A stretch of DNA of 64,000 bases, from assembly GCA_900618795.1 (NCBI GenBank), contig UYJD01000002.1, positions 1,938,908 through 2,002,907 of the forward strand, given 5' to 3'. Both the position numbers and the translations under genes were made by a program. A model generated the notes under the pieces. It saw only the letters and a program-made list of their open reading frames with translations, had not been told where the DNA came from and ran no database searches. This DNA is from Cyanodermella asteris. Its lineage: Eukaryota > Ascomycota > Lecanoromycetes > Ostropales > Stictidaceae. Positions within the stretch are counted from its first letter, which is position 1, and each line of letters begins with the position of its first letter. This document shows positions 20,631 through 51,702 of this stretch, piece by piece.

Positions 20631-21209
20631 GAAGCCATACATGGCTTCAGGCACATCACCGGAACCACGACACCCCTATGTCAGCACACGAAGGGCCCAA
20701 TCAGGTCGAGAGGCCATGGCACCAAGACGCAGATCAAACACGCAAATCAAGTTGAATGGAGATATGCGCGCTGATAAAGTTCATAACACCATGCGGACGC
20801 AGGGCCGGAATCCCTAGCGCTACATTCACGTGCCCGAAGTGCACGTTGCAGACCGATTATTGGCGCCGATTTCGAACGGGGTTCCGACAAAACTTCAGAT
20901 GGCACGTTCAAGGAGCATCGGCATTTGTTTGGGGACTCCTAATTATCGGATCTATAACATGGGACTACAATGTAGGCGCTGGCTGGTGACACCTATCACA
21001 ACCTGGTGCCCGAAGTGTGTAGACACATCAAAGTTCAATGCACTGGACGGAATCTCCGATAAAACGAAGTGACCTTGGAAATGCCTGCAAGTACATATAG
21101 GCCGATGAGCGCCAGCATTTCTGACAACGCACTCAGACAACCATCTGCGACCACCAGCAGGTCCACCCTTCCTCTGAAAGTCAAGTTGTGCCCATCTTCT
21201 GTCGTCACC
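20631..21209. other. Intergenic, nothing recognised
   Basis: A 579-bp spacer between DCD1 and the short-chain dehydrogenase relic. Short frames only. Confidence 0.45.
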
Positions 21210-33789: not shown

Positions 33790-34722
33790 TCAGGCCTTCT
33801 TCTGAATCCATGCACCAACGTCATGACCCCATTTCTCTTCCTTTTCAATTCCAGTTCCTACCGACAGCGGTGGGCTGATGTGGTTGTGGCCTGCCACGTA
33901 CAACTCCTCCGGCTTGGTCCCAGACCATGCATCCATGAAACGCTGTATAGGTCCCAAAATCTCGTCCTGCGGGTCAAGTTCCTCATATACAACCAAAAAG
34001 GGTACGTTTTTCAGCTCCGTCTCCTGAGGCTGCGCTCGCTTGAGCAGACCCACAGGACAGTCCTCCTTCATTATCTCCTTCGAGCCGTAGTAAACCGATA
34101 GAACATCATCACGACTCGCGTCCGCAGCTGCAAAGTCCATCGGAACCGACAATTCCACCACGCCAGCGAGCTCTATCCCGCTCTGAGCGGCGTCATCCAC
34201 AACCTTCCGCCTCGTGTCTCGGAAAAGGGGAGAAAGCAGGAATGTTGTAATGTGCACGCCACCGGCCGAAGCACCCATCAAGAAGAGCTTCCGTCGCTTT
34301 CCAGGCTGCGAGAGCTCCCGAACGATCCACTCGACGGTCAGGCCGACGTCTTCTCCTCCGCTTGGAAACCTCGCGCCGTGGGACGTCAGCCTGTAGTCGA
34401 TGATGACGACCTGGAAGCTGAAGTTCTCGGCGAAGAAATGCCCAATGTTGTGGTGGGCCAGGCCATTGGCGATGGGTAGTGTCTTGCTGCCTGTAAAGAA
34501 TCCACCTCCGTGGACAAAGACGAGGATGGGAGATTCGGGAGACGATTTAGTGGTTGAGGTGTAGACGTCTAGCTTTTGTCGAGGGTTGGGCCCGTAAGAG
34601 AACTCCTCGACGGGCGTCGATCTGATTGCGCTTTCGTTCGCTTGGAGTAAAGGGGCATATGTGGCAAATGTAGGCCCGACACAATCCACAACTGCGGTTC
34701 CGAAGTTAGGTAGAGAATCCAT
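33790..34722 (-). CDS. Alpha/beta-hydrolase (carboxylesterase-like)
   Basis: Single exon, 310 aa, no signal peptide, so probably intracellular. The oxyanion-hole motif HGGGF is at about residue 72, in VFVHGGGFFTG. The nucleophile elbow is GASAGG (FLMGASAGGVH). The acidic residue is probably in YEELDPQDE and the catalytic His in AGHNHIS. This fits the esterase/lipase class related to BD-FAE and kynurenine-formamidase-type hydrolases. The substrate cannot be told from sequence. Its position beside a lactonase, a transporter and oxygenases suggests release of an ester-linked or acylated intermediate, which is inference. Confidence 0.88.
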   Translation of the reverse strand: MDSLPNFGTAVVDCVGPTFATYAPLLQANESAIRSTPVEEFSYGPNPRQKLDVYTSTTKSSPESPILVFVHGGGFFTGSKTLPIANGLAHHNIGHFFAENFSFQVVIIDYRLTSHGARFPSGGEDVGLTVEWIVRELSQPGKRRKLFLMGASAGGVHITTFLLSPLFRDTRRKVVDDAAQSGIELAGVVELSVPMDFAAADASRDDVLSVYYGSKEIMKEDCPVGLLKRAQPQETELKNVPFLVVYEELDPQDEILGPIQRFMDAWSGTKPEELYVAGHNHISPPLSVGTGIEKEEKWGHDVGAWIQKKA

Positions 34723-35225
34723 CTTCCCGAGTCGATGTTCGACGAATAAATGAATTACGGCACGGATGGGATTACAATTCGATCGCCAAACTATACATGC
34801 AGGTACACATTATTGCAAGTGCTGGGATACAAAATGAACGCAAGATATTAAGATAAACGAATGAGGCGTAAAGCTCAGTGAGTCAGTGATGCTGACCCCT
34901 CGTCGGCGCCCGCGTCATGTCCGCTCGGCCCGGCCGGGGTCGAGATGCTTCCGATGCAGTTCCTTCCACCTTCTCGAAGTGCCGTTCCACCATGCCGACG
35001 CTACAAAGCTCCCCACAACAGCTCGCACGTTCTTCATGAACGAGTCTAGCCGCATGCGTCTCAGATCAGTGTTTACGTTCAACTCTCGCGTCACCGAAGC
35101 AGCGGAGAGGACATCTGGCAGCAGTCATGGAAAAGTGATGGCTTCAAATCTGCCGTCGAATCTACCAGATACTGCGTGGTATTCTAACAAATGTCAGGAT
35201 GAATATTCAATTGTCTCTCCTTCGT
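34723..35225. other. Intergenic, nothing recognised
   Basis: A 503-bp spacer between the hydrolase and the hydroxyacid dehydrogenase, both on the minus strand. Confidence 0.5.
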
Positions 35226-36287
35226 TCAATATCCATTCGTCGGCTTGCCCTTGGTCAGCTTCGTGTCCGCAAATTCCTTGTGTTCTGGGATGAAGCTCAT
35301 CTCTCTGTGTTGACCAGTTACCGCATTGCGCACGTTGTTGATCGCCCAAATCTCCATCGCGCGTTGGGTGTCTTTTGTGAAAGTGCCGACGTGAGGCAGC
35401 AGGAAGCACTTTTCGTTCGCCAACAATTCCGGGTGGATATTTGGCTCTTCCTCGAAGACATCCAGGCCAGCGCTGGCTAACCGGCCACTGTTCAGTGCCC
35501 TGACCAATGCAGCTTCATCAATGATTGCCCCTCTTGCGGTATTGACGATGACGCTGCCTTCCTTCATCCTGTTGAATTGCTCGTCGGATAACAAGTGGCG
35601 CGTGTTTGGCGAGAGGGGAACGTGTACACTTATCACATCGCTCTGGGCGAGGAGATCATCAAACGAAGCGTAGGTGGCGCCGCACGCCTTCTCTGAGTCG
35701 AGCTGCCTCCGGTTGTGGTATATGACATTCATGCCAAAAGCTTGCGCTTTGCGCGCAAGGCTGGACCCGATGCCTCCCATTCCCAAGACACCAAGCGTTT
35801 TGCCACGAGGGTCACGGCCTAATTGAGCGTTTCCCCGCCACTTGCCCTCTCGTGTCGATCTCGAAAGCGGGTAGAAGTTTCTGAGCGCGGCGAGCAAAAG
35901 GAAAAGAGCCGTGTCCGCCGTTGCGTCGTCGACGGCCGTCGGGGTGTTTGTAGCGAAAACGGGCAGGTCGATTCTGGCAGAGGCGAGCTCGGCGGGTCTT
36001 AGCTGATCGTATCCTGCTCCGTTGTGACAGATGAAGCGGAATGACTTTGGCAGTGCCTTGACCAGTTCGACATCCCAGATACCGGTTTGGCTGACTGACT
36101 CGACTGTACGGTATGCTGCGACGACTTCATCGAAGGCTCCTGAACGAGCTTGTTCGAGGAACTCAGATCGACTTGTAGCTGAGCAGGTGACGAGCTCTGC
36201 TACACTGGACAGGGCTTGCCATTCTTTCTGAGCGTGAAAGAACTGGCCGAGAAGTAGGATCTTGGGACGGACTGTGCTGGAAACCAT
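35226..36287 (-). CDS. D-isomer-specific 2-hydroxyacid dehydrogenase (glyoxylate/hydroxypyruvate reductase-like)
   Basis: Interconverts 2-keto acids and D-2-hydroxy acids with NAD(P)H. Single exon; the first true ATG is at 36287, giving 353 aa. The Rossmann core has GVLGMGGIGSSLARKA (G-x-G-x-x-G) followed by HNRRQ at the end of strand beta-2; basic residues there favour NADPH. The catalytic triad is visible: Arg in NTARGAIID, Glu in VFEEEPN and His in LLPHVGT. HNGAGYDQL and TNTPTAVDDATADTA match the glyoxylate-reductase subgroup (yeast Gor1). Next to a lactonase and an aldolase, reduction of an aldolase-derived keto acid is plausible but not shown. Confidence 0.92.
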   Translation of the reverse strand: MVSSTVRPKILLLGQFFHAQKEWQALSSVAELVTCSATSRSEFLEQARSGAFDEVVAAYRTVESVSQTGIWDVELVKALPKSFRFICHNGAGYDQLRPAELASARIDLPVFATNTPTAVDDATADTALFLLLAALRNFYPLSRSTREGKWRGNAQLGRDPRGKTLGVLGMGGIGSSLARKAQAFGMNVIYHNRRQLDSEKACGATYASFDDLLAQSDVISVHVPLSPNTRHLLSDEQFNRMKEGSVIVNTARGAIIDEAALVRALNSGRLASAGLDVFEEEPNIHPELLANEKCFLLPHVGTFTKDTQRAMEIWAINNVRNAVTGQHREMSFIPEHKEFADTKLTKGKPTNGY

Positions 36288-37063
36288 TTTCAAGTAGTTT
36301 GGAAAGAGGCGATGTTTCGACGAGATGACAGCGAGTGCAACGGCGAGAATCTGGTGTACTTGTTCACGATATGTGAACTTAACAGCAGCCTTCCCCGATG
36401 ACCTCGAGCTGTCGCTTTGACCCGGGATTCTTGATCATATGTGTTTGCCGCGGTCGCGCGGCCCATGATGGACGAGGCGTCCCATGTCCACTTGCAGGCA
36501 TCTTTTCATTCTCGGCATAATGCGAGCTGGACCCAGAATTGTCGCACGGTGATGCACGAAGTCAAGAAGAGTTCAAGAGGAGCTCAAACAGAGTTTGTGG
36601 CGGCGGAGACGGGAGCGTGGGGAAGTGGGACTCCCGACCCCACGTCCGCATCCCACATCTACTAATAGCAGTGAACGTGCACCATCTTCTAGATATTCTA
36701 GATCTTCAAGCCACATCCTGTCTTGACTCTTGAGCCTCGATGAGCCGCAAACCATGACTAACCGCTGACGGCTGCACTGTTGCAGGGATGTTTTCTGCAC
36801 ACCTCCACTACGCCATCTCGTATACCAAGTTTGCTGCGTTGGCACAGTACCTAAAAGAGAAGAGAGGTCACCAATCGTTAGGGAGCTAAACCAAAACAAC
36901 AACGCCAAGGTGCTGAAGGGGGTGTGCAAAAAACATGCTTGCAACACTGTAAAGCTGCGGGCTGCTGCTGGATTACTTTGGAGCCCTTTTGTTCCTGAGA
37001 TGTTGCGCAGCTACTTTGTCTTGACATTTGTAACGAGCATAACACGTTCAGTCTCTTGTCAAA
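36288..37063. other. Divergent promoter of hydroxyacid dehydrogenase and lactonase genes
   Basis: A 776-bp spacer shared by two divergent metabolic genes. No gene inside; a shared regulatory region is possible. Confidence 0.5.
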
Positions 37064-38195
37064 ATGTCTATCCACGTGAGTCGCCGACGTGTCCATTGAG
37101 TGCATTTCCGAATTGAATTGCGAGTGTTGACTTCATTGACAGGCCATCAGCGAAGACTACCACAGCCGCCCTGAGCCCAGCCCACAAGCAGAGCCTCAGC
37201 CTGCAGACCTCGGATTCTGTACCTTCCAAAGTGATGGTAAACAGCTTCTCGGTTCACAGCCATCATTCCACGTCGCACGCAAATCCTCGGATCCCATCTT
37301 CCACGAAGCCGCAGTCTTATTCTCCTCGGACGCAGAGGACTCCCTGTTCGTCACCAGCAACATCTTGACCGACCCCGAAACCTCGTCCAAAAGCATCCAG
37401 ATTCACCGGCTCTCCAGGAACCCAGCATCGCCGTCCGACTGGTCGATCGAACAGATCCCCCAAGGCGATGCAGTCATGGCGAACGGCGGCGTAGCCGTTC
37501 CCGGCGGGCAGGGCATCCTTTTCTGCACACAAGGATCCATGACCGACCCCGGCGGGCTCGTCCTCATGACGCGTGATGCACCGTACGACACTAAACCGAT
37601 CTTGACCGACTTCCATAAACGATGGTTCAATTCCACCAACGACGTCGTGTACGGGCCGGACGGTGCCATCTGGTTCACAGACCCCATATACGGGTTCGAG
37701 CAGGGCTTCAGGCCACAACCGGAGATGCCGAGCCAGGTCTACCGCTTCGATCACGGGACCAAAGACATCCGTGCCGTCGCGGACGGCTTCCAGCGACCCA
37801 ACGGGCTGTGTTTCAGTCCGGGTGGAGAGACGCTGTACGTCACGGACACGGACTACATTCATGGGGACGGCTTGACCGACAAGGCTAGGGTCTCGAACAT
37901 ATATGCTTTCACGGTCGAGCAGATCGCCGGGTCACCGTTCCTGACGAATCGTCGCCTCTTTGCCATGGCCGACACCGGTGCGCCCGACGGCATCAAGTGT
38001 GACAAGGCCGGGAACGTGTACAGCGGGTGCGGGGATGGAGTCAATGTATGGAGTGCCGGCGGCGAGCTGTTGCTGAAGATTCTGGTTTCCGGAGGCGTGG
38101 CCAATTTCTGCTTTGGTAGGCCTGGGGAGGTGTTGATGTTCAACGAGACACGATTTGTGATTGCGAACATATCGCAAGAAGTTGTTGCGGCGTGA
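37064..38195 (+). CDS. SMP-30/gluconolactonase-like lactonohydrolase
   Basis: Six-bladed beta-propeller of the SMP-30/gluconolaconase/LRE-like family, which hydrolyses sugar or aldono-lactones with a divalent metal. Exon 1 has only 12 coding bases (37064-37075, MSIH). After a 67-nt intron, exon 2 runs 37143-38195, giving 354 aa. Expected metal ligands are visible: Glu in DPIFHEAAVLF, Asn in QRPNGLCFSPGGETLYVTD and Asp in GAPDGIKCDKAGNVY. WFNSTNDVVYGPDGAIWFTD is another family signature. There is no signal peptide, so it is cytosolic. Shares a divergent promoter with the 2-hydroxyacid dehydrogenase and is convergent with the sugar transporter. Confidence 0.9.
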
Positions 38196-38722
38196 GTAGT
38201 CGATCTCGAATCCTAATCATGTGTATGTCGTCCCAATGCTTGAAAGCTCTGCCTCAGGTAGCACTGTTGAATCAAAGTCCCTGGTAGATTAGATCTTGTC
38301 TGCAAGCTATGTGGTAAACAGCTCGTACATGTGCGCATCCGGGAATTTTCAAAATTTCCAAGTTTGTGCTTTGTGATTGCTAAGGGCTTGCGGTTCTACT
38401 TCCACTTGTGTTCGGGGCTTCATTCCAAAAACCACGCATGTACGACTAACAGCCGGATGGAACGCCGGCAGGGAGGAACCATGAATTTGTTCAGATTAGA
38501 TTTCATTGCTTTCGGTTTGGTATGATACAATTTCTTGTGATGCAGTCCTCGACTGGTGTGTACGAGGGTCTTTGAGGAGATGATCCCTCAGCGACGGTGG
38601 AGAGAGTTACTTCCCGTCCCGCACTCCTGACTAGTGAGACCTGCCCAGAACGATAGCCGAACAAGTCGGCTCCGCTTCTTATGCCTCTCTCGTAGCTCAC
38701 GAACCCGATTTCCGGCTCTGGT
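38196..38722. other. Convergent 3' intergenic region
   Basis: A 527-bp spacer between the lactonase and transporter 3' ends. Nothing recognised. Confidence 0.5.
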
Positions 38723-40408
38723 TCAAGCTTTGAGCTCACAAGTCACCTCGTTGTGAGTGGCGGGGTACTTGCCCTCGTCGCGCACCTCCAGCACATCTCG
38801 AGCTTCGGGGCTGGCGAACAGCAGGTCCACATCCTCCAATTCCATACCGCGTGTTTCAGGGTAGAAGAAGTATATGACAGGAACGAAGCAGGCTGTGGTC
38901 AATTAGCAAGGAGCTGGCAGCTACGTGCAGGTGTAACGTACCGTTTAAGACCGCGAAGATGAGGTAGTACCTCCAGCCAATATTCTGGATGCCAATTGGT
39001 GTGATTTGGACGATTACGAAGTTGGTCAGCCAGTTAATACTAGTGGCCACTGCCGTTCCTGTTTGGCGAAGCTTGATTGGCAAGATTTCGGGCGGATAGA
39101 CCCATACAGTCGCTTGGAAACCGACGGTAAAGCATCCCATGTATAGAAACAGCATTGCAGCGGCGGCGATACCGGCCGTGTGAGTAATGGGCGTGGCGTC
39201 GTCGATCTGCTTCGAAAGTCCACACATGACAGCAAAGACGGCGGCCGTGATGGAGATGGAGACGAGGAGCAAAGGTCTCCTGCCGACCCTGTCGAGCAAG
39301 GGCCATACGATGAAGCTGGCAATGAAGAACCAAGTGAAGAGGAAACCGGACATCAAAGCGCCAAGATGTGAGTCAAATCCGATCGAAGCGAAGATCGTTC
39401 CAGCGTAATCTGTTGAGCCACGGTTAGCACTCGAAAATCAGCTCGTGCCTGCCACCACTCACAGATGATGCCGTTGATACCACCGAGCTGCTGGAAGAAT
39501 TGGATGCCGCATGCTAGGAACAGCCTTCTTCGGCCTTGGATCTCTGTGGACTGATCAGCATTTGGCAACATTGCTAGGCGACAGATCTGAAGCATACCGT
39601 CCTTGGTTAACATTGACTGCCAGAACCCGACTTGCATAGAGTTCTCTGCCGTGACTGCGGCCCTCATGGAATGGAATCTCTCATCCGCAGTGATGCTTGG
39701 ACTTCCAAAGGTCGTGTCGCGGATTACCGACAGCGCCTTGTCGGGATGATCGTGGGCAAGCAGCCATCGAGGCGATTCCGGGAGAAACGAGGCCAGTAAG
39801 ATGATGGGGATGATGAACATGCACTGTAAGATGACCGGAACCCGCCATGCGTAGCTTGCAGCCTGACCAGCAAAGCCGTAAGTGATCCAGTAAGACAGGA
39901 AGATGCCCAGGTTCAGGGTGGACAGCATGACACAAGCCCATAGGCCACGAGATCCAGCGGGCGAGGATTCTGATTGATAGACTGGAGCAGTACTGTTGAT
40001 GAAACCCATTCCAATGCCCGAGACAATTCGAGCAACGATCATGTGCGGTAGGCTGTAGGCAGTGGCTTGGAGAACGGCGCCAATGAGCATGACGACGCCC
40101 CCAAGGAGCATTGATGATCTTCGGCCCATTTTTTCACCAACGATGGCACAGCCGATAGCCCCAACGAAGCATCCTATCTCGTATATGGCAACAATCAAGC
40201 CAAGCGTGGTGGCCGTGAGCGACTCGAAGGTCCCTTTGAAAGCCGGCTGCTCGATAACACCGCCGAGAACTCCATTGTCGTAGCCTGATAGCGTCAGCTC
40301 CTGAGCGATTCCACGTCGCTCACGTCAATCATGCGTACCAATCAGAAGGAACGACAGAGACGAAAGAGCTGTAATGGCGGCGAAGAGGGGTTTGCCTCGA
40401 AGACCCAT
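38723..40408 (-). CDS. MFS sugar transporter (12 TM)
   Basis: Five exons, 40408-40339, 40284-39598, 39543-39463, 39409-38942 and 38892-38723 (introns 54, 54, 53 and 49 nt, all phases agree), give 491 aa. Hexose-transporter hallmarks are in order: YDNGVLGG in TM1, GEKMGRRSSML after TM2, ARIVSGIGMGFINSTAPVYQ in TM4/5, PESPRWLL before the central loop, FFQQLGGINGIIYY in TM7, DRVGRRPLLL after TM8 and PETRGMELEDVD after TM12. It sits at the plasma membrane as a proton symporter or facilitator. The family includes hexose, pentose, galacturonate and quinate carriers, and sequence alone does not settle the substrate. Convergent with the lactonase and divergent from the aldolase, which suggests uptake of the cluster substrate. 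Confidence 0.93.
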
Positions 40409-41043
40409 TGTCGTATACAGTTGTCTTCACGAGAGACCCCGGACTGACTGGCGATAGTCTGGGAAAGTGATGCCATCGTCAGCTTGCTTTATAGACATGA
40501 TGCAGGCGACTTCAGAGTTCAGACAGCTTGGATCAAACCGCGCTCAGGCTGAGAAGTCGACGCATGCTTCTCCAGACTCCTTCTCCGCAAGAGCACGGTT
40601 CGAAAGAGCGTTTGTGGCTTGGAGTCCGAGCTTCTTCAGATTTCGCCCACTTCCTTGACTGCCCCCGCGGGCTGCAGGGCACCTTGACACGACTGAATGA
40701 CTGACTGCGCCAGACACACCGGCCATCGTCCGATATACACACGCATTCTAGATCTGAGCTCGCTCTATGATGCTACTCTTACCATGTGTTTGGTCGCGGC
40801 ACGCGTCGTGCTTCTGCACGTGGCACGTCCCGGCTCATGGTCCTGCTGCAAAACCGCGACATCGCAGCAGAATACATCAGAACATGTCTATGCGCAGTTG
40901 AAATGCTCGGATATCTGCATGGGGTCGCCAAAATCAGTCCTCTCTGTGGGGGATAAAGGCTCCTTCTCCGCTCAGCACACACATTGGCCGCTTCATTCGA
41001 CCTTCTCAATCTTTACTGCACAGACAGACTTCTGTCCGGAACA
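40409..41043. other. Divergent promoter of transporter and aldolase genes
   Basis: A 635-bp spacer shared by the transporter (-) and aldolase (+). No gene inside. Confidence 0.5.
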
Positions 41044-41916
41044 ATGACGGTCGACAACATGTTCCAGAACAAGACGGTTCAGATCCTCAACCACGCGAGG
41101 GAGCATGGATACGCCGTCCCTGCCATGTGTTGCTACAACCTCGAGGGCGTCTTGGCCACAGTAAGGGCAGCTGAAGCCGAGAATTCCCCGGCAATGGTTC
41201 TCTTCTTCCCGTGGGTCATCGAATACGCCGGGCCCATCCTTGTCAGGGCAGCGGGAGAGGCCTGCAGAGCTGCCAAGGTACCGATCGCGCTACACCTCGA
41301 CCACGCTCAGACTCCGGAGATCGTAAGATTGGCTGCAGACATTCCGCAAGGATTTGACAGCATCATGTGTGACATGAGCCATTACGAAAAGGAGGAGAAT
41401 CTGCGACTCACGGCCCAGCTGACCAAGTATTGCCATGAACGCGGCATTGCCACGGAGGCAGAGCCCGGCCGGATCGAAGGGGGCGAGGACGGTGTGAGCG
41501 AGACTTTGGATCTGGAAGGCATCCTCACGACGACCGAACAAGCGGAAGAATTTGTCGGGACGGGTATCCAGCTGCTCGCTCCAGCGTTCGGCAATGTTCA
41601 CGGAAAATACGGTCCGAGAGGGATCCAGCTAGACTACCCGCGTCTAGAATCCATCAACAAAGCAGTCGGGGATCACGTTCAGCTGGTGCTTCACGGTGCT
41701 GATGGCTTCACCAAAGAAATCTATCGGGAGTGCATTTCTCGAGGCATCGCCAAGGTCAATATCAACGGTGCGATGAACGACGAATACCTCAAGGTTCAGC
41801 AGCAGTCCCGCGGTGTGCCCATAACTTCGATCATCTCAGACGGCACCTTGGCCATGGAGAAAGCAGTTCGACAGGCAACAGACGATCTTGGAAGCAGGGG
41901 CCAAGCGTGGTCATAA
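41044..41916 (+). CDS. Class II fructose/tagatose-bisphosphate-type aldolase
   Basis: Zinc aldolase of the FbaA/KbaY/GatY family. Single exon from ATG 41044, 290 aa. LHLDHAQT holds Asp86 (general acid) and zinc ligand His87. EAEPGRIEGGEDG is the family loop. The other zinc ligands are His186 (FGNVHGKYG) and His217 (LHGADG). VNINGAMNDEY carries the Asn that contacts the phosphate or substrate. The length and the EAEPGRIEGGEDG form place it with the small ketose-1,6-bisphosphate aldolases rather than the about 360-residue housekeeping fungal Fba1, so a dedicated catabolic substrate is likely. Divergently paired with the transporter. Confidence 0.9.
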   Translation: MTVDNMFQNKTVQILNHAREHGYAVPAMCCYNLEGVLATVRAAEAENSPAMVLFFPWVIEYAGPILVRAAGEACRAAKVPIALHLDHAQTPEIVRLAADIPQGFDSIMCDMSHYEKEENLRLTAQLTKYCHERGIATEAEPGRIEGGEDGVSETLDLEGILTTTEQAEEFVGTGIQLLAPAFGNVHGKYGPRGIQLDYPRLESINKAVGDHVQLVLHGADGFTKEIYRECISRGIAKVNINGAMNDEYLKVQQQSRGVPITSIISDGTLAMEKAVRQATDDLGSRGQAWS

Positions 41917-44000
41917 TCAAGATAGTTTCGCAAAATGCTAAAGCATCCCGGCCAGTGCTCGCCTAGATCGCCGGTCCATTCCGTAATAGTCGTATGCAAA
42001 TCCAGGAAATACTCGTTGATCAGGCTCTCGGAGATCATGTCGCTAAAGCTTCCATGAAGCCTTGAGTCAGATCTTCCCTAACTGCATAGCTGTTGACAGA
42101 TGCAGTCATCCTTCAAGTGCCGCGCTCAATGATTCCAAGGATACGTAAACCCTCTACGCCATTATTCGAACCGAGTGTGGGATACTTTCACTCCCCCAGT
42201 CGCACGATCGGAGGCCCCCACGCAACAACTCTTGACGGCTTGCATCCTTTCAAGGATTTTGCATACACAGACAAAAGCCTACACAAACGAACATCGTCTT
42301 CTGACGGTCGAGGCGAAGGAAGGCTTGATCAGGAGGAAGATGCATCGAGACTTGACCAGTGTACGCGACTGTTCCGTGGCTTGCTTTTGTCTCGCCCATG
42401 CCTCTCACGAAGAGTGCCTTCAAACTTAAGCCTTGACGTCGATGTGGAGCATTTATCTCTAATCCCTGATCGTGATACGCATCGAGGTGCTGTCCGGCGT
42501 GACGGCTTCACGTTCTGTAAAGGGAGCACGGCACGCCGCCTATTTGAATTCCGCATCGTCGCGAGACTCCGTCCAGTCCAGATGAAGCTTTGTAGCAGCA
42601 GCCGCAGAAACTTCCACCAATCCAGAAGCGCGGTGCGATACAAGCCTAACACGAATCCCATTTCGCCTGGTCAGTTGCGACACGCAATGTCATTCACTCC
42701 ACGATCGAGCCACGGCCAATGACTCGTCGCACGTCGTTTCGAGATTTTGGGTGGGCATGTATCATTACCCGGATGCAATACCTTCTGTCTGCAACAAGTT
42801 ATTGTCGACTGCAACGCTATTACATGTCTGCCATTAGCGGTTCCGTCCTCTGTGATGCAATTGTCTTGATCCCAATTGTTGTTGGGGGAAAAGCAGAGCA
42901 ACTCAAAACCGGTGTGCAGCACTATAGGAGGAACGGAAGCATCACGCGTAGCCGAGACACTCTTCCGAACGGACTCGATGCTTCGGTGTCTGGTTTCTCG
43001 GCTGAAATAAGAGTACAGATAGAGCTTTGGGCAACAGAGCCTGCGACACGACGTTCGACAGCCAAGCTCACTCTCTTCACGGGCTAGCTAGCCAGGTAGC
43101 TGTTATCGAACATGATGAATTCGGATTCTGTCGCTTAGGCAGACATCTCCATATCAGTGCTGAACTTGATGGCATTTTGGATGGGTTCAGCAATCACGTG
43201 TTTCCCGGACACGTCCTGCGATCGAAGATGACTCGGGAAGCATCAAAGGTCCTAGACACAAATGAAAGTGAATGAATCCAAACAGGTAGCAAAGACGACG
43301 AATGTCGGCTACCTTTGCTTGTCACGCAAGGGAGCTTATCTCCTCGGTTCCACCAGAACGCCGAAAATAAGTCCAGCCTTGATTTCATGTAGGCACCAAA
43401 GTAAGGCACGGAGGAAGAGCCAGTAGATACTAGCGCAAACAAACCACGTACACGAAACTTGTCCAAGATTAAAGGCAATCAGGGTAAGAGGCAGGACTCA
43501 ACGCCGAATCTATGTAAGACATTCGTCAATTCGACCACATGGATCCTCGCTCGCCAGACCGAGCTGCGAAGGACGTAACAGCAGGCTAGTAAAGACGGCA
43601 GTGGTTGGCACAGCCACATCTCGATCGTTGCCCCCGGCAAAAAAGATGCACTGCCACAGGTGACAGCAATTGCGGCAGAGATCAAAAGTGTCAAGGTGTG
43701 CGACGCCCTGCGATTCGACGAAAGCATGACCCAGGCTCTGCAGTATTGGCAGGGAACTGTGCATTTGCACGCACGTCTGTTCCGGGACCACACTCCTAAC
43801 CTCATCTGCGGGGTCGGGAGATGTGGAGTAATCCGGGGTGGTGACTAGAGGTAAAATATCCGAACTGATGCCTTTGCGACTGTGGCGATGGAGCTTTGGA
43901 CTAGCTCGTGAGCTGTCAATGATGCGTAGTATACCAAGGCCTGACGGTTTGTTGTTTCTCCCATTGTCATTTCTCACATTTTCGGAATAAGTCGCCCAAC
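41917..44000. other. Intergenic inside the metabolic block, no gene supported
   Basis: About 2.1 kb. Frames at 42093-42722 (+), 42329-42661 (-) and 43510-43977 (-) lack recognisable domains. On the plus strand, 43501-43850 reads somewhat protein-like (for example SVKVCDALRFDESMTQAL then YWQGTVHLHARLF) but has an in-frame stop near 43576 and no identifiable family, so it could at most be a remnant. This is where a pathway regulator might have been expected; I see no Zn2Cys6 motif. Confidence 0.4.
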
Positions 44001-45096
44001 ATGTCTGTCCAGACTATGGATTTGCCGCCGTACAAGGCAGGAGCGACGTATAAGATTCCTGCGCTCAGTGGAGAAGTGATTTACATCCCACTATCCAAAT
44101 CTGCGACGAGGTTGGCCGTGACAGGGAAGGAAACGGAAGGGGCATTTGCGATAGTCGGTTCGGGCGGCAGTCAATCAGATCCCATCGGTTTCCACTTTCA
44201 TTGGGAGGCCCACGATGTCTTTCTCTGCCTTCAGGGCAAAGTCAATGTTTGGGCCGGAGAGAAATGCCGGACTATGGAGTCTGGCGATTTCGCCAGCGTC
44301 CCGCCCGTACGATCGATTCCAACCCGCCGGCGAGGAAAAGTTGATTCTAACCGCATCTTAGGGCACCGTTCACCAGTACCAAATCTTGGGCGAGCACACC
44401 GAATTCGTCGGCTTGATCTTTCCTGGCGGATGGGAAGAATTCTTCCGATTCATTGGCGAGCCATACAGCGGCCCAATGTGGCCTGTCGAAGACGACCAAA
44501 ACTTCTTCGAGGTACTACTGCCGAGATTGAAAGCGGCAGCGGAGCAGTTCGACATGGTACCGCAACCACAGATCAAATCATTCGATCCCCAGCCATGGCA
44601 GGACAGCGATAGCACACTTCCGGACGGTAAACTATCATATTTCTTAAAGCACGCCAAAGGCCCAGCGTACGTGGCGGAGGGCACCCTGACACGCCCCCTG
44701 GTTACGACGATACAAAGCGGTGGAAACTTTGCTATTGGCAGCATTGAAAGCTCGAGGTTACACAAAAGCGTGTTGTTCAGCGCGGCCGAGAGCATCAAGT
44801 TTGAAGTTCATCACGCGTTCCAGGTTGTCGAGGGCAAGGTGAAGTTCAAGGTCGGGGAGGAGAGCAGCGAGCTTGGACATTGGGAGACGCTGTTCATTCC
44901 TGCAGGGACGCCTTTCAGCTTTCACACTGTGGGTAGAGCGTCAAAGATGTACGCGTTCTCGAGTGGTGGAGGGGTGGTAGAATTGCTTTGCAAGATCGGC
45001 ACGGAATACGCCCATTCAATCTTGCCCGAGAAAGAGGTGGCCTGCAAAGAGGAAGTCGCAAAGTTCAGTCAAGAACTGCGTTTTGTCATTGCTTGA
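44001..45096 (+). CDS. Bicupin, quercetin 2,3-dioxygenase-like
   Basis: Two exons, 44001-44306 and 44362-45096 (intron 55 nt, phase 0), give 346 aa with two cupin domains. The first has the metal motif GFHFHWEAHDVFLCLQG, with His65 and His67, then His71/Asp72 where quercetinase has Glu, and the distal ligand His106 in GTVHQYQ. The second (about residues 230-330, FEVHHAFQVVEGKVKF then GHWETLFIPAGTPFSFHTVG) has lost the HxH pair. Quercetinases open the flavonol C-ring with O2 and Cu or another metal, and release a depside and CO. Many relatives have other or unknown substrates. There is no signal peptide, unlike secreted Aspergillus quercetinase. The fold is firm; the reaction is only suggested. 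Confidence 0.82.
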
Positions 45097-45622
45097 AGTG
45101 AAATCTGGATTATTGTCGAGACGTTGAAGTCGATGAGCGTAGTGCGAGTTCACATGTATGTTCAGAACAAGACTTCAATTGTTCTTTACTGCTATGAAAA
45201 GTAAGACTACAGACATACAAATTAGTGTGCAACTAATCAGAAAGATACCGATAACATCGTAATTGTAGTACAGCTTGCCTCGAAAGCCGAGTGTAGACGG
45301 CTCGATCGTACAGATTCAAAGTGGACGTCGATTGCATGTGCCAAAGCCAGGGACCGCTATTGTGGGGCAGAATTGGTTCCCGAGCAGACAGCGTTACGAC
45401 GCAACCCCAGATTTAGAGACGACGCATCCTCTCAACATAAGATGAACAAGACCCATGTGTTGTCATCCCCGATGGGCGTACCAGTCCTCGATCCAACGAG
45501 GCAGTCTGCGTGCCAACATTTTCCCGGCGTCATATCTGGTCACCCGGCCGTCCGCTTTGCCTTGGCCGAACATTTCCCATGCAAACATTGATCTTCCAAT
45601 TGCCGGTGGAGCGATTCTCGAC
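45097..45622. other. Intergenic, promoter of the monooxygenase
   Basis: A 526-bp spacer. An open frame continues upstream of the accepted start at 45623, but its first ATG-less part is not family-like. Confidence 0.5.
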
Positions 45623-47095
45623 ATGTCTTCGCCGATCCGGCTACACGTACTGGTCGTCGGAGCAGGTCTCGCCGGCCTCGCGGCTGCGATAGCATGCGCG
45701 GAATCGGGGCACCAAGTTACGGTCCTGGAGGCAGCCAAAGTGCTCGCCGAAGTAAGTTTATTTCGACTACGCAAACGCTACAAAAGTCATATCTCGCAAG
45801 GAGTATATGCTGACCGGTCATCCAGATCGGAGCTGGACTTCAAATCACCCCTAATAGCTCCCGTCTGCTTTACCGATGGGGTCTTCAAGACCAAGTGGAG
45901 AAATCCGGCTGCGAGCCTCGAACACTGGCAGTCCATCGCTACTCAGATGGGCAGCTCTTGGCCAATGAAGAGGATTTCAACCATCAGATGCGCGGGAAGT
46001 ACGGCGCACCCTTTATTGATATGCACCGAGGCGATCTGCACATGATAATGTACAGACGAGCCCTCGAACTCGGAATAGAAATCAAAACATCCGCACGAGT
46101 CGCTCACATCGACCCCGACGCCGCAACGGTATCGACTGAAAATGGCGACTCGTATTCGGCAGATCTAGTCGTCGGCGCCGACGGACTGTGGTCAAAATGC
46201 CGTGAGGCTCTCCTCGGCCAGCAGGATGCGCCATTACCGACGGGTGACCTGGCGTATCGAATCGTCCTCACACTAGACCAGCTCGCGGACCAGCATCTAC
46301 GAGATATGGTGTCGAACCCGGCGTGTCATTTCTGGATCGGGCCTGGTGCACACGCCGTGGCGTACAGTCTCAGAGGCGGAACCATGTACAACATCGTTTT
46401 GCTGGTGCCAGACAATCTGCCCGAGAACGTAGCCAAGCAGGCCGGATCGGTAGAAGAGATGCGAGAGATCTTCAGGGGATGGGATCCAGTCCTGATGAGG
46501 TTCCTCGACCAAGTCGACAAGGTCGAAAAGTGGAAGTTGATGCATCGGCCAGAAGTGGAGAGGTGGACGAATGAGAAGGGGAACTTCACGCTCATCGGTG
46601 ATTCGTGCCATCCGTAAGTATTTGCGAACGATCTAATCCTGTGATATTCGCATACTGATCTTGCTTACAGCATGCTTCCTTACCTGGCACAAGGTGCGAA
46701 CTCGGCAATCGAAGATGGCGCCGTCCTCGGTGCGGTGCTCAGCGGGCTCGAGAGCAAAGAACAGCTGCCCGTGGCTCTGAGAGCATGGGAGAAGGCACGA
46801 AAGAGTCGGAGCGAGGCGATTGTGCGTGAAACGTTCCACCAACGGCACGACTTTCATTTGATAGATGGACCGGAGCAGGAAGCAAGAGACGAGCTTTTTG
46901 CTTCGCAGCTTGGGCAACCTGTTTCGGTTAAATTTCCAAGCAGATGGTGAGATGACTCCAGTCAGACCGGCTTGAGCTCAACTGACCATTTTCAGGACTT
47001 GCCCAGAGGTACAACCTTGGCTGTATGGCTACGACGCATATCAACAAGCAGATGTGGCCAAGAAGGAGCTTGAATTATTGCATTCGAACCTTTGA
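45623..47095 (+). CDS. FAD-dependent aromatic monooxygenase (salicylate hydroxylase-like)
   Basis: Class A flavoprotein hydroxylase using NAD(P)H and O2. Four exons, 45623-45751, 45826-46613, 46671-46946 and 46996-47095 (introns 74, 57 and 49 nt), give 430 aa. Start chosen at MSSPIRLHVLVVGAGLAGLA, which leads straight into the dinucleotide-binding GxGxxG motif. IGAGLQITPNSSRLL follows the first splice. The DG motif is VVGADGLWSKCR and the GD motif is LIGDSCHPMLPYLAQGANSA with EDGAVLG. This layout matches salicylate-1- and 3-hydroxybenzoate-6-hydroxylases, which act on phenolic acids. No signal peptide. Convergent with the P450 (202 bp apart) and downstream of the bicupin, consistent with aromatic breakdown; the substrate is not proven. 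Confidence 0.92.
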
Positions 47096-47297
47096 CGAGA
47101 CAAATACAAGATATTTCGGGAAAGGTGTCGGGATCAAACACGCGAATGTATTGTGATTCTTCCATCACCTGTGGCATCTGAGTGCCACATACCTGAGTCC
47201 AGTTATGTCACCCAGACTTCCTCATTATGGTTGGATGCCCTCGCACGAGCTGAGCTGCCTCCAACTCGATATTTGAATTGATGCATTCAGCCAGCAT

Positions 47298-48980
47298 TTA
47301 CCATCCAGGCACCGGGGTGAGCTTGATATGCATGCCGTTCTTCGGCTTTGTCGTAACCACGCCAGCTGGGTAGATATCCTCCTCCTTCATATCAAGATCA
47401 ATCTGGTAGCGTCCAAAGACGGCTGCAACCAAGCACTTGAGCTCCTGACGAGCAAAGCCTTGGCCAATGCAAGAACGCGGGCCGTGGAGAAAGGTAATGA
47501 CAGAGTAGTTGCTGCCCGCACCACCCGTGTTGGCGGTGCCCTCCTTCATCCAGCGCTCGGGGATGAACTTCTCGGAATCAGCACCCCAGAGATCCGGGCT
47601 GCGGTTGATGGCCCAGGGCACAAGCGTCAGAGCCGTGCCCTTGCGGACGGGGTAGCCTTGGAGCACGGTTGGCTTTACGGCTTCGCGGACGGTGATGGGA
47701 ACGGTGGGGTAAAGACGGAGCGTCTCGTTACAGACGGCGTTCAGGTAGGGCATGCTGTCGATGATGGACTGAGTGATCGGTGCGTTGAGGTTGGAGATTT
47801 TAGACCGGATTTCTTCTCTGAGACGGGTCTGAACGTCCTGGTTCGTGGCCAGCAGGTAAGCCACCCAGGTCAGCGCAGAGGATGTGGTCTCATGGCCGGC
47901 AGCTAACATGGTCAGAACCTGGTCGGCGACTTCCTTGTCCTTGAATTGCTTGCTGCGGATAACCATGCTGAGAATATCCTTCTGATCGTCGCGCAGGCCT
48001 TTGGTCTCTGCTTGCTCGCGACGTTTGCGCACGAGATCTAGCGCGTACTGTGCCAGCACACCAGTGATCTTGTCCATCTTCCTGTTCTGTTCGATCGGAA
48101 GGATGTTGACGAAAAACTGCGGCAGGAGGACGCAAGCAGCGAAATAGATAGCGTTGCTAGTGTCTGGCTCGAGTAGTTCCTCGTAGTTTTGAACGAGCTC
48201 GTCCTTGGCATTGTTCAAGCTGTTGAAATCCTGACCGAAACCTGCAATACCAATGATATCCAGTGTGACGCGTGTTGTCCAATCGTTGAACTCAATGCGG
48301 CCCTTCTTTTCGGTGATCGCGTTGTCAATATGCTGTCTCTGAATTGCCTCAACCATCTCAACACCTTTGGCCCAAAATAGTGGGTGGAGGTCACGAATGA
48401 CGCTGAACTGGAAAGACGCGAGTAAGTTTTTGCGTTGGAATTTGTGTACAGCGCCCTCTGCCAGGATCAGACCGAGGCCCAGAACACGAACGAGGAAGGC
48501 AACGACAGGCTCGGGCTTCTGCCAGTCGTAGGCATGGTCGCTGAGTACTTCTTTCAGCGCTGCTGGTGAAGTCGGAACTAATCGCCATTCGTTACCGAAG
48601 CTTCGGAATGCTAATAGACCATCGTTGGGAATAGTTTTGACCCATTGCAGAAATTCTGCTGCCGGTGGTTTAGAGAATTGAGCCGTCGCGTTGCCTACAA
48701 GTAGATTGCCCTGTCCATTGTGTTAGCGATTGTTCAAGAGTCGATCTAGACTACTCACCTTAGGCCCTGGTAATGTCCTGAAAGGGCTGATAAAGAATGG
48801 GTAGATGAAGCACTTGTACCCAAAGAAGAGTAGGAAGTTGGGTATGTATAGGTACAAGATGGCACGCGATATTCTGTGATGCAGAATGTAGTCTGGGGTC
48901 ACAGTCTTCATAGTATATGCCTCCGCCGCCGAAGCGATGAGGACATACATCAAGTCTTTGGCCAAGTATGTGGCAGCCAT
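47298..48980 (-). CDS. Cytochrome P450 monooxygenase
   Basis: Two exons, 48980-48759 and 48710-47298 (intron 48 nt, phase 0), give 544 aa. An N-terminal hydrophobic anchor (ILYLYIPNFLLFFGYKCF) is followed by the proline hinge region FRTLPGPKG, so it is ER-bound. I-helix oxygen-binding motif AGHETTSSAL, K-helix NETLR (ExxR), PERF-type motif FIPERW, and heme-Cys loop FLHGPRSCIGQGFAR are all intact. All core residues are present, so it should be active. The family resembles CYP4/CYP52-like fungal P450s by general pattern, but assignment to a CYP family needs a search. Convergent with the flavin monooxygenase; it may hydroxylate the same substrate. Confidence 0.94.
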
Positions 48981-50523
48981 GGTGAATAGCTTCGCTCGGC
49001 TCCTGTGCTGATTGTGGTATCAGCTGCGCAGAACCAGTTCGTCGGCTAGGATCTCACTAGATGAGATATATGCTTTGTATGGCAAGTCGACCTGCGGCCT
49101 TCCAGAACACTATATGTCAAGGGTGCAATGTTGGTGCCTTGCGATGCGCTGATCTATCGAGCAGGGGGTTTCGCGAGACCTCGGCTGGTGCAGCTCTCGA
49201 GCAAGATACTTGCCGACAATCGAATGTGAGGATCATGGCGTCACTAAATAGCTTGTCAGCCACACCGCGAAAGAAAGTTTCCTTGTGAACTCAAAGGCTG
49301 ATTACGAGGGGTAGCGGGCTCGAACGGGTACACTTGTGGGAAAAGGGCGGCAGTGGGCCAGTTTAGAGACATGACAACCGTGCACATACGCAGGCAAGAT
49401 GACCCTCTCGGCGACCACAATCCCTTTCCCCGCAGCCGATACGGTGATACCACGATCGATTGTGGGGAAGCGCTTGAATTAGAACGGTTGGAAATCAGAC
49501 GCGAGACGAAAGTGGTTAAGCACAGAACGAGACCATCCCATTTGGACGAGATGCATTGCTCAACCTCTCGTGCCTTTGCAGCCGCTCGTGGGGCTCATAA
49601 GGGCTGCGCGATCCAGGCAGAAAAATTCGAGCATCTCTAACGATTTCGTTCGATTGGCTAGGATTTCAGCTGGCCGAAAACAACTCGCACTTTGATCGTA
49701 GGCCAGCAAAGTGCGAGGACAGGCAGCGAAAAGCGAACTCGAGCCGAGGCACAAATACCAGAATGCCAAGGCTAAAAGACCGAGCCAACACACAACTGAG
49801 CTGTCTTTATCAACTTCAACACATCCGAGCTTGGTAAAATCATCGTTGCTTGGAGCCTCAATGCGTTGGCCCATTCAAAGGGCTCCCGGACACACTGCGG
49901 ATGCTTCCTATCTTCATGAAGCTATTTTCCCGCCTGCGTGGGGCACATGAAGTCTTCGACCTCGCCGTTGGCAAACACATATTTGCTGCAAATCAAATTA
50001 GCAAGGTGCTGCTGGAGCAGGAGCGTCTCGGAAAACATTCGGCAACAAGAGCAGTCTTTCCATGCCTTGGTCGGCGCGTCGAGACCAGAAGAAATCTGCC
50101 ATTGACGCTTCTCAAACACAAAAACGAACTGCAAAGCCTCTTGTTTTTTTTTTCCCATCTCAGAATGGCTGACTCTCCCTCATCGAGAGTCCACGTTGGA
50201 CAAATGCTTGCTTTCGTTGTTGCATTAGATCGATGTGGGTTGTTAGCAGCAACGGCGTAGAGGTGATTTGTTGTGAGGATTTGTTGTCACAGCTCGTCAG
50301 GCCGTGAAGTTGGGCTTTTGTTGGCCATCGCATGACTCCTATTGACTACTTACACGCCCAGAATCAGAGCAAACGGAAAGAACAAACCTCACTATACTGG
50401 ACACCCCATCATGTGTGCATTTGCGAGCCGTGGAAGCCGCAATCTCTCGCTCGTTTCTCTCCTGCCATCCACTTGCTTACGTTGCCTGGGATAACCAACA
50501 TTCAATTCACAGACCTCTGAATC
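48981..50523. other. Intergenic, no gene recognised
   Basis: About 1.5 kb between the P450 promoter and the kinase relic. Only short frames; a T-run (about 50142-50154) is the sole simple-sequence feature. Confidence 0.5.
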
Positions 50524-51702
50524 ATGAAGCTGAAGAATCTGGTGCACGCGATCCTTCCTTTTCTCTCGCTTAGCCCTCCAAGGATCGAGGAAGGTACCCT
50601 TCAGCAGTACAAAGACCACAAGTGGTACCATGCAGTTCCCGGAAAACTTTTGCAGGATGGCTACTCTATTGTCGCGAAGCTCGGTTACGGCACCACATCG
50701 ACGGTTTGGCTTCTCATAGATTGGAGACGCTCCCTTTACAGGGTCGCCAAAATCCACGTTGCAAATGATTCGCGCGCCCTTGAAGAGATCAAAATCTTAG
50801 ACAGGCTCAGGCCCATGCCCAGGGACCATGCAGGAGCAAGACTTGTCCGCAACTACCTCAATAAATGTTCAGTCAGCTCCAATATTTTCCACAAGCATAC
50901 CTGCATCATCTATTCGCCTCTGGGGCCAAGCCTGAATGAATTTCGTCGACAACGCGGTGGCCGGATTCCAGTCAGGATCTTCAAACCCATGATCAAGCAT
51001 ATGTTGCTCGCCCTGGATTACCTTCACACGGAATGCGGCATGGTCCATACTGACGTGCACTCCGGCAACTTTCTCATGCAGATCTAAGGGATCAAATCGC
51101 TTGATCACATAAACCAGATGGAAATGGCCAATCCAAGCGCGCCTCATGTCAGAAACCGCTGCACTATCTACGAATCGCGCCGTTTTCCGACGGAGAGTGT
51201 GACTAACATCCCAGTGCTTTGCGATTTGGCCAATGCAGTGATCGGACAGGAGCACAGAGGAGACCCAACACCAGACCTCATGCGCCCTCCAGAAGTCATC
51301 CTGCAAATCCCATGGTCGAACAAGATAGATATCTGGTGTCTTGGATTAGTAGTATGGTATTGCATCCAGGGTCGCCAGTGGTACGAATACAAATATGCGC
51401 CGAGAAAGCTGACGGAGCTGGAGCACATGGCATGGACAGTCGCACTGCTGGGCACTCCACCGCGAGCAGCTTTCACTTGGATGGGCGCAAGCAAGAGAAG
51501 AGCAGAGTTCTTTCACGGCAATGGGCAGTTCAAGCGACCCTCTATTGTTCCGGAGTCGACCATGATGGACCGGGAGCTGTCATTGGCAGCAGACCATGAA
51601 GAACGACAGTAATTCATCTGTTTCTTGCCGCGCATGCTGCAGTGGGATCCTGACTCAAGGTCCAGTGCTGCGGAGTTGTTGAAAGACCCATGGATCAATT
51701 GA
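50524..51702 (+). pseudogene. SRPK-like protein kinase with two in-frame stops
   Basis: One frame carries a whole SRPK-type kinase domain from ATG 50524 to TGA 51702, about 390 codons, broken by TAA at 51085-51087 and TAA at 51610-51612. There is no frameshift. Parts in order: a family lead-in (YHAVPGKLLQDGYSIVAKLG), glycine loop LGYGTTSTVWL, lysine strand YRVAKIH, catalytic loop MVHTDVHSGNFLM, DFG-equivalent VLCDLANAVIG (DLA instead of DFG), APE-equivalent RPPEVIL, then DIWCLG and a final MLQWDPDSRSSAAELLKDPW. Around both stops the family alignment runs on without gaps, so each looks like a point change; CAA to TAA would fit both and would be a C-to-T change before A, as in RIP. Fungi often carry many SRPK-like copies. 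Readthrough or a sequencing error cannot be excluded. Confidence 0.82.

What the first reader, a model, noticed from the sequence alone, without database searches (positions are those of the whole stretch)
33790..48980. Accessory catabolic gene cluster with sugar-acid and aromatic arms
Eight adjacent genes encode an alpha/beta hydrolase, D-2-hydroxyacid dehydrogenase, SMP-30-type lactonase, MFS sugar transporter, KbaY/GatY-type aldolase, quercetinase-like bicupin, salicylate-hydroxylase-like FAD monooxygenase and a P450. Conserved housekeeping genes (SGT2 on the left, golgin and NAS6 on the right) flank them. Several pairs are divergent with shared promoters. Transporter, lactonase, aldolase and keto-acid reductase fit oxidative sugar-acid use; bicupin, flavin hydroxylase and P450 fit ring cleavage. 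A single hypothesis that joins them is breakdown of a phenolic or flavonoid glycoside. I know of no described cluster with exactly this set. No regulator gene is visible.
Basis: partly seen in the sequence, partly recalled or inferred. Interest (0 to 1): 0.72.

Follow-up and report, generated by a model that had tools for sequence, protein, structure and literature searches.

The report
Fungal accessory plant-phenolic breakdown gene island
Eight neighbouring enzyme and transporter genes in a fungal genome look like a small accessory toolkit for breaking down plant phenolic compounds, but several enzymes are not quite the textbook versions their names suggest, and nothing yet shows that they work as one pathway.

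Summary
In detail: eight intact, conventionally spliced genes lie at 33,790-48,980 of a 28.5-Mb fungal genome, among mostly housekeeping neighbours. The "quercetinase" has Asp at the Glu metal-ligand position (this change left Streptomyces QueD marginally active); a Glu-type bicupin lies unlinked elsewhere. The "KbaY/GatY aldolase" keeps its catalytic site but lacks the Ser/Thr and Thr found in 12 of 12 conventional relatives, so a phosphorylated substrate is unlikely. The "salicylate hydroxylase" is nearer decarboxylating hydroxybenzoate 1-hydroxylases, but a paralogue fits those better. Ring-cleavage, dehydratase and rhamnosidase candidates are unlinked; no regulator pattern or shared promoter words were found. 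Two bacterial bicupins that share the Asp sit in aromatic meta-cleavage gene sets resembling flavonoid clusters (one with a rhamnosidase), which keeps a phenolic role plausible on new grounds; the tree neither shows nor rejects their grouping with G6. Best reading: an accessory degradative locus for plant phenolics, one-pathway status unproven; main rival, unrelated accessory genes side by side. Synteny across fungi could not be tested.

The parts
33790..34722 (-). G1: alpha/beta hydrolase, BD-FAE / hormone-sensitive-lipase type, 310 aa, single exon; HGGG at 71 and GASAG at 150
   Evidence: Pfam PF20434 5.1e-16; best PDB 4zrs esterase 9.1e-28; motifs
35226..36287 (-). G2: D-2-hydroxyacid dehydrogenase, 353 aa, single exon, best solved match a glyoxylate reductase; NTARG, GLDVF and LLPH motifs present
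   Evidence: PF02826 4.2e-61; best PDB 3wnv glyoxylate reductase 4.8e-107; motifs
37064..38195 (+). G3: SMP-30/gluconolactonase-like, 354 aa, 2 exons (37064-37075, 37143-38195)
   Evidence: PF08450 1.9e-22; best PDB 3dr2 4e-21; model
38723..40408 (-). G4: sugar-porter-family MFS transporter, 491 aa, 5 exons
   Evidence: PF00083 1.3e-103; TIGR00879 313.9 bits over cut-off 237.8; model
41044..41916 (+). G5: class II aldolase, 290 aa, single exon, Zn-ligand and catalytic Asp positions kept but HGAD / NING in place of HG[GAS][ST] / NxxT
   Evidence: PF01116 3.3e-83; 63% identical to PDB 3pm6 over the aligned region; below NCBIfam cut-offs; alignments; only other genome match a 35% stretch of a canonical aldolase on C15
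44001..45096 (+). G6: bicupin, 346 aa, 2 exons (44001-44306, 44362-45096), metal motif H65-x-H67-x4-D72 ... H106; no signal peptide evident by eye
   Evidence: PF07883 9.1e-13; best PDB quercetinases; motif
45623..47095 (+). G7: group A FAD monooxygenase, 430 aa, 4 exons
   Evidence: PF01494 2.1e-27; best PDB 8gsm 4-hydroxybenzoate decarboxylase 1.9e-112; model
47298..48980 (-). G8: cytochrome P450, 544 aa, 2 exons; N-terminal membrane region by eye
   Evidence: PF00067 2.2e-79; model; best PDB only 164 bits, 6l8i
36288..37063 (.). shared intergenic region of the divergent pair G2/G3
   Evidence: distance; no shared words with the other promoter regions beyond chance
40409..41043 (.). shared intergenic region of the divergent pair G4/G5
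   Evidence: distance; no shared words beyond chance

Best explanation
An accessory degradative locus of a filamentous fungus aimed at plant-derived phenolics (phenolic acids, esters or flavonoid-like compounds). Shown: eight intact genes and their families. Inferred: G8 (P450) and G7 (FAD monooxygenase) hydroxylate, and G7 perhaps decarboxylates, the aromatic substrate. G6 (bicupin with an Asp ligand) opens or remodels an oxygenated ring of a phenolic intermediate rather than quercetin itself. G1 (BD-FAE-type esterase) and G3 (SMP-30 lactonase) hydrolyse the ester or lactone products. G5 cleaves a non-phosphorylated hydroxy-oxo acid, and G2 reduces the small 2-oxo acid or glyoxylate released. 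G4 imports the substrate or a sugar-like partner. On this view the supposed sugar-acid arm is the lower half of an aromatic route, not a sugar-phosphate route. Whether all eight are co-regulated is unknown.
For: Intact genes and families. G7 is closest to decarboxylating hydroxybenzoate/vanillate 1-hydroxylases. G5 lacks the Ser/Thr and Thr present in 12 of 12 conventional relatives, but keeps the Zn-ligand and Asp positions; of 4 further conventional PDB chains printed the Ser/Thr is seen in 4 and the Thr in its column in 3 (in 1rv8 the loop is shifted). G2's best PDB match is a glyoxylate reductase. Full-length bicupin tree of 8: G6 lies with the own-genome quercetinase-like protein and two bacterial Asp-type bicupins, 100/100. 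Those two sit beside an FAD hydroxylase, a VOC protein and a FAH hydrolase, one directly after a BD-FAE esterase and the other in a locus with GH1, GH106 and hydrolases. Hydrolase genes directly adjoin the bicupin in 3 of the 6 loci whose neighbours I could read (L036, L057, L058). Degradative clusters anchored on 'salicylate hydroxylase' genes are a described kind in fungi (PMC10735191, passages).
Against: No shared promoter words and no regulator pattern. The three related aromatic loci I read around (4-hydroxybenzoate hydroxylase-like, quercetinase-like, intradiol dioxygenase) are unlinked to this one, so clustering is not needed here. G6 pairs with the own Glu-type protein (93/94) rather than with the bacterial Asp types, so the shared Asp may be convergent; the domain tree is unresolved. 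The bacterial FAD hydroxylases score over the cut-off of an MhpA-type (hydroxyphenylpropionate) subfamily, unlike G7, so those clusters may serve phenylpropanoids rather than flavonoids. L057 and L058 carry Glu-type bicupins, and no hydrolase was seen in L034 or L056 (small flanks) or directly beside the bicupin of L035. Fungal synteny was not testable.
Confidence: 0.43

Rival explanations
1. Chance or loose accessory neighbourhood: two or more small modules (for example the divergent pairs G2/G3 and G4/G5, and separately G6-G8 with G1) that share a permissive chromosomal patch but no common pathway.
For: No shared promoter words beyond chance and no regulator pattern; 2.1-kb gap between G5 and G6; mixed chemistry; related aromatic genes elsewhere stand apart; FAD-monooxygenase matches are numerous, 47 exon-level matches of which four are G7 itself, so such a gene is a weak cluster marker.
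Against: Eight consecutive accessory metabolic genes; of the 20 other window frames scanned, 12 had a Pfam match and most of these are housekeeping; two divergent pairs; G5 and G6 each matched only one other place-cluster in the genome (lower bounds).
Confidence: 0.35
2. One reading: breakdown of a phenolic or flavonoid glycoside by quercetinase ring cleavage, with the sugar going through an oxidative sugar-acid route.
For: Bicupin homologous to quercetinases; sugar-porter transporter; rhamnosidase-family matches exist in the genome.
Against: Asp for Glu in the bicupin metal site and QueD E76D marginal (PMC4416304, passages); aldolase Ser/Thr and Thr positions lost; no glycosidase or dehydratase among the window frames scanned, and such families elsewhere.
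Confidence: 0.07
3. Fungal counterpart of the bacterial fde/ifc flavonoid A-ring route: hydroxylation by G7, A-ring fission, then a lactone or pyranone handled by G6 and G3 and an oxo-acid released by G5.
For: Penicillium rubens degrades naringenin; masses matching a hydroxylated naringenin, a lactone and the end product of the Herbaspirillum route were seen, oxaloacetate release is proposed, and the genes are unknown (PMC10755750, passages). In the ifc route cupins IfcD1/D2 act on a pyranone intermediate (PMC11069340, passages). Bacterial Asp-type bicupins sit in gene sets of similar make-up.
Confidence: 0.08
4. Tailoring end of a biosynthetic (secondary-metabolite) cluster.
For: P450, FAD monooxygenase, MFS and cupin genes are common tailoring functions (general knowledge).
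Against: No PKS, NRPS or terpene-synthase match among the 28 window proteins and frames scanned; aldolase and hydroxyacid dehydrogenase fit catabolism better (judgement).
Confidence: 0.04

Closest known systems
Degradative gene clusters of fungi anchored on 'salicylate hydroxylase'-type genes (Gluck-Thaler and Slot scheme, as applied in Trichoderma, PMC10735191)
   Same: A group A FAD monooxygenase amid accessory oxidoreductases, a hydrolase and a transporter
   Different: The scheme's support from recurrence across genomes could not be tested here; G7 scores far below the salicylate 1-monooxygenase cut-off
Quercetinase (flavonol 2,4-dioxygenase; PDB 1gqg from Aspergillus japonicus, Bacillus YxaG 1y3t, Streptomyces QueD 5fli)
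   Same: Bicupin or cupin scaffold, three His ligands aligned
   Different: Asp72 for the Glu ligand; no signal peptide evident by eye; a Glu-type homologue with a hydrophobic N-terminus exists at C5:1746458
Bacterial fde/ifc flavonoid clusters (Herbaspirillum, Variovorax; PMC11069340) and the loci L035/L054 and L036 of similar make-up
   Same: FAD hydroxylase, cupin and alpha/beta hydrolase in one locus; the cupins of L035 and L036 carry the same Asp
   Different: No VOC or FAH gene found in the fungal locus; its FAD monooxygenase is of another subfamily
Decarboxylating 4-hydroxybenzoate / vanillate 1-hydroxylases (PDB 8gsm, 8x38)
   Same: G7's best solved relatives; 8gsm aligned over 416 residues, 379 bits
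   Different: A paralogue at C14:846263 is closer (455 bits over its first 308 residues), so G7 is probably a diverged copy
Class II fructose/tagatose-bisphosphate aldolases (KbaY/GatY/FbaA); PDB 3pm6
   Same: Family, Zn-ligand and catalytic Asp positions; 63% identity to 3pm6
   Different: G5 and 3pm6 both lack the Ser/Thr and Thr found in 12 of 12 conventional relatives

Membership tests
Quercetinase | bicupin/cupin fold with quercetinase-like sequence | tested here: met
   PDB 2h0v 8.9e-40, 1gqg 1.3e-24
Quercetinase | 3His/1Glu metal site, G(X)5HXH(X)3,4E(X)6G | tested here: not met
   Asp72 in place of Glu; consensus as given in PMC4416304
Quercetinase | flavonol 2,4-dioxygenase activity | not testable with these tools
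   needs purified protein
Class II ketose-bisphosphate aldolase (KbaY/GatY/Fba) | Zn-binding His and catalytic Asp positions | tested here: met
   D86-H87, H186 and H217 columns carry D/H in every row that covers them; ligand role recalled
Class II ketose-bisphosphate aldolase (KbaY/GatY/Fba) | HG[GAS][ST] and NxxT (phosphate-contact role recalled, not from a call) | tested here: not met
   HGAD and NING in G5 against 12 of 12 with S/T and T
Class II ketose-bisphosphate aldolase (KbaY/GatY/Fba) | score over the curated NCBIfam cut-off | tested here: not met
   TIGR00167 193.1 of 215.6; TIGR01858 154.5 of 443.55; NF009374 169.6 of 383
Salicylate 1-monooxygenase | score over TIGR03219 cut-off | tested here: not met
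   98.1 of 446.35 bits
Decarboxylating 4-hydroxybenzoate 1-hydroxylase | closest homologue in its genome to a solved member | tested here: inconclusive
   G7 379 bits over 416 aa against C14 paralogue 455 bits over 308 aa
SAH-type fungal degradative gene cluster | anchor gene homologous to salicylate hydroxylase | tested here: inconclusive
   G7 matches TIGR03219 (4.4e-28) but far below its cut-off
SAH-type fungal degradative gene cluster | recurrent co-location in other fungal genomes | not testable with these tools
   no fungal genome held besides the window's own
fde/ifc flavonoid A-ring cluster | FAD hydroxylase plus FdeC-like VOC dioxygenase | tested here: not met
   FAD hydroxylase present but of another subfamily; no VOC among the window frames scanned, one weak partial match in the genome
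fde/ifc flavonoid A-ring cluster | pathway cupin | tested here: inconclusive
   G6 on one side of a 100/100 branch with two cupins of fde/ifc-like loci and the own Glu-type protein; Asp-type grouping not shown, p-AU 0.077

The most novel reading that the evidence does not exclude
The locus is a fungal flavonoid- or polyphenol-scaffold degradation cluster working like the bacterial fde/ifc A-ring route. An Asp-ligand bicupin and an SMP-30 lactonase act on ring-fission lactones, and a class II aldolase that has lost its phosphate-contact residues releases an oxo-acid that the glyoxylate-reductase-like enzyme reduces. That would supply candidate genes for the naringenin breakdown seen in Penicillium without known genes (PMC10755750).
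Probability: 0.08. Interest if true: 0.72.

Novelty: new member of a known kind. Interest (0 to 1): 0.36.

Why it matters
If the locus is one pathway it would give candidate genes for fungal breakdown of plant phenolics, where PMC10755750 reports flavonoid degradation without identified genes (passages). Independently of that, G5 and its structural relative 3pm6 look like class II aldolases whose substrate is not a sugar bisphosphate, contrary to the deposited name of 3pm6 ('putative fructose-bisphosphate aldolase'). That is a testable correction for a fungal enzyme group. The case also shows that family names alone would have misassigned three of eight genes.

Tried and rejected
Rejected: canonical sugar-acid pathway (no dehydratase among the frames scanned; DHDPS and MR_MLE_C matches elsewhere); quercetin ring opening by G6 (Asp ligand); hidden genes in the 42.0-43.9 kb gap (three frames without Pfam match); recent foreign DNA (GC3 like flanks); a shared Zn2Cys6-type site (CGG-Nx-CCG for x = 0 to 12: no spacing found in more than two of the six promoter regions). 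In the same call SYGGRG (CreA-like; name recalled) was somewhat denser in the promoter regions (5.69 per kb) than in the window (4.19 per kb); I did not test this difference.

Led nowhere: scans of genome contigs (2) and viral contigs (1) for aldolase relatives found none, but the method uses a few short peptides and is insensitive. The plasmid search with G7 gave 542 records, all under 60% identity, and was not followed. The cupin domain tree did not resolve G6. Literature searches (listings) found no described cluster with this gene set: quercetinase, gene cluster, fungal, flavonoid degradation; 4-hydroxybenzoate 1-hydroxylase, decarboxylating, MNX1; catabolic gene clusters, phenylpropanoid, quinate, fungi, stilbene, salicylate hydroxylase; the Gluck-Thaler title; class II aldolase, gluconolactonase, D-2-hydroxyacid dehydrogenase and others; fdeE, fdeC and others. 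The library lacks most subscription papers. Searches gave no direct statement of the phosphate-contact residues of the aldolase; that role is recalled. Structure prediction was not used.

Full report
WHAT WAS CHECKED. The window is C6:1938908-2002907 of an unnamed 28.5-Mb, 25-contig genome; genes split by short introns and the gene content show a fungus (inference). Eight genes were modelled by splicing at GT-AG sites: G1 alpha/beta hydrolase, G2 D-2-hydroxyacid dehydrogenase, G3 SMP-30-like protein, G4 sugar-porter transporter, G5 class II aldolase, G6 bicupin, G7 FAD monooxygenase, G8 P450. Of 20 other frames of the window scanned, 12 had a Pfam match: MCM helicase, NFACT protein, photolyase, dCMP-deaminase type, a short-chain dehydrogenase, Med16 and SGT2 on the left; a weak kinase match, TMF golgin, a WD40 protein, ORC1 and DUF7905 on the right.

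G6, THE 'QUERCETINASE'. The PDB matches are quercetinases. Aligned to the Aspergillus and Bacillus enzymes, G6 keeps three His but has Asp72 where they have the Glu ligand. In Streptomyces QueD the same change, E76D, left 1.32 U/mg, called marginal; E76H, at 3.44 U/mg, is described there as about 2% of wild type (PMC4416304, passages). So flavonol dioxygenase activity is expected to be poor, if QueD is a fair guide. The genome search found one other bicupin gene, at C5:1746458, with the Glu in place and a hydrophobic N-terminus that looks like a signal peptide by eye; in the 9.9 kb read around it I recognised no catabolic neighbour by eye. Among ten aligned cupins Asp occurs in 3 (G6, Croceibacterium, Rhizobium) and Glu in 7.

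WHERE ASP-TYPE RELATIVES SIT. The two bacterial Asp-type bicupins give the two best E-values of the 12 plasmid records found. In Rhizobium rhizoryzae the genes before the bicupin on the same strand encode a VOC-domain protein, an MhpA-type FAD hydroxylase, a FAH hydrolase and a BD-FAE esterase; a tricarboxylate-type transporter follows. In Croceibacterium the locus has FAH, an MhpA-type hydroxylase, LysR, a VOC protein resembling extradiol dioxygenases (below their cut-offs), the bicupin, a GH106 rhamnosidase, a family 1 glycosylhydrolase, a dienelactone hydrolase and an alpha/beta hydrolase. In make-up these resemble the fde/ifc flavonoid clusters described in PMC11069340, where two cupins act on a pyranone intermediate (passages). 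Against that, both hydroxylases score over the cut-off of an MhpA-type subfamily (489.8 and 490.2 bits, cut-off 390), so a phenylpropanoid route is as possible. The full-length tree of eight bicupins puts G6, the C5 protein and the two Asp types on one side of a 100/100 branch. Within it G6 pairs with the C5 protein (93/94, not starred); a G6 + Asp-type group is not rejected (p-AU 0.077); four rows, G6 among them, have a deviating composition. The domain tree is unresolved. So the link is suggestive, not shown.

G5, THE ALDOLASE. G5 is 63% identical to PDB 3pm6 over the aligned region. It keeps the Asp and His positions of the metal and catalytic site. At two positions that, as I recall, contact the substrate's phosphate, conventional enzymes have Ser/Thr and Thr: 12 of 12 (11 plasmid-record proteins and the fungus's own canonical aldolase on C15, which reads HGGSG and NLDT). 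In four further PDB chains printed the Ser/Thr is seen in 4 and the Thr in its column in 3. G5 has Asp and Gly; 3pm6 has Asp and Arg. G5 also misses the curated NCBIfam cut-offs. The genome's only other match is that canonical aldolase. A phosphorylated substrate is therefore unlikely; the KbaY/GatY label describes the family, not the function.

G7, G2, G1, G3, G4, G8. G7's best solved relatives are decarboxylating 4-hydroxybenzoate and vanillate 1-hydroxylases, but a gene at C14:846263 is closer to the former; in the 9.9 kb read around it I recognised no aromatic-pathway neighbour by eye. G2's best match is a glyoxylate reductase, with its motifs intact. G1 resembles an esterase, 4zrs. G3 is a diverged SMP-30 protein; six matches of that family occur in the genome, G3 included. 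G4 passes the sugar-porter cut-off, a family that also holds quinate permeases (recalled). G8 has no close solved relative.

IS IT ONE PATHWAY? Against: no enriched word is shared by the six promoter regions. Words of seven to ten bases present in three or more regions are no commoner than in 300 random placements in the window. No Zn2Cys6 or C2H2 pattern is in the window's six frames. Intradiol dioxygenase, DHDPS, MR_MLE_C and rhamnosidase matches are unlinked. For: contiguity, two divergent pairs, and a chemically sensible reading in which hydroxylation (G8, G7), ring modification (G6), ester and lactone hydrolysis (G1, G3), aldol cleavage (G5) and reduction (G2) follow each other. The order of steps is inference. 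Hydrolase genes directly beside the bicupin in 3 of 6 bacterial loci with readable neighbours (L036, L057, L058) fit an ester product of the cupin; L057 and L058 are Glu-type, and L034 and L056, read with small flanks, and L035 show none directly adjacent.

KNOWN KIND. Fungal degradative clusters anchored on 'salicylate hydroxylase' genes are described; 116 such cluster families are reported for one Trichoderma dataset (PMC10735191, passages). [quoted passage not shown] This locus would be another candidate of that kind. Its exact gene set was not found in print by the searches listed under Tried and rejected.

VERDICT. Real, intact and moderately interesting; family names were right and functional labels partly wrong. 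The phenolic theme survives on new grounds, while the sugar-phosphate and quercetinase parts do not. Scores: interest 0.36; best explanation 0.43; chance neighbourhood 0.35.

Noticed in passing
L032 (C14:266000-275900), about 1-5128: A hydroxyquinol/catechol-type intradiol dioxygenase gene lies near a GH28-like gene and a carboxylesterase gene; may be a small plant-cell-wall or phenolic locus of its own (GH28 and esterase read by eye).
   Followed up: no
L033 (C5:1742000-1751900), 4282-5505: Second bicupin with the intact Glu ligand motif and a signal-peptide-like start: the better quercetinase candidate of this genome.
   Followed up: partly
L031 (C14:840500-850400), 5767-6978: FAD monooxygenase closer to the solved decarboxylating 4-hydroxybenzoate hydroxylase than G7 is.
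   Followed up: partly
window 50521-51612: Protein-kinase-like gene in two frames with a weak Pfam match just under the cut-off; may be an atypical kinase.
   Followed up: no
window 21063-21707: Short-chain dehydrogenase frame among housekeeping genes on the left.
   Followed up: no
L054 (NZ_CP156083.1 24000-56000): Croceibacterium plasmid carries a compact locus that looks made for a phenolic glycoside: family 1 glycosylhydrolase, GH106, VOC protein, FAD hydroxylase, FAH, Asp-type bicupin, TonB receptors.
   Followed up: partly
PDB 3pm6 (outputs): Deposited as putative fructose-bisphosphate aldolase, but it lacks the same Ser/Thr and Thr positions as G5, so the name is doubtful.
   Followed up: partly
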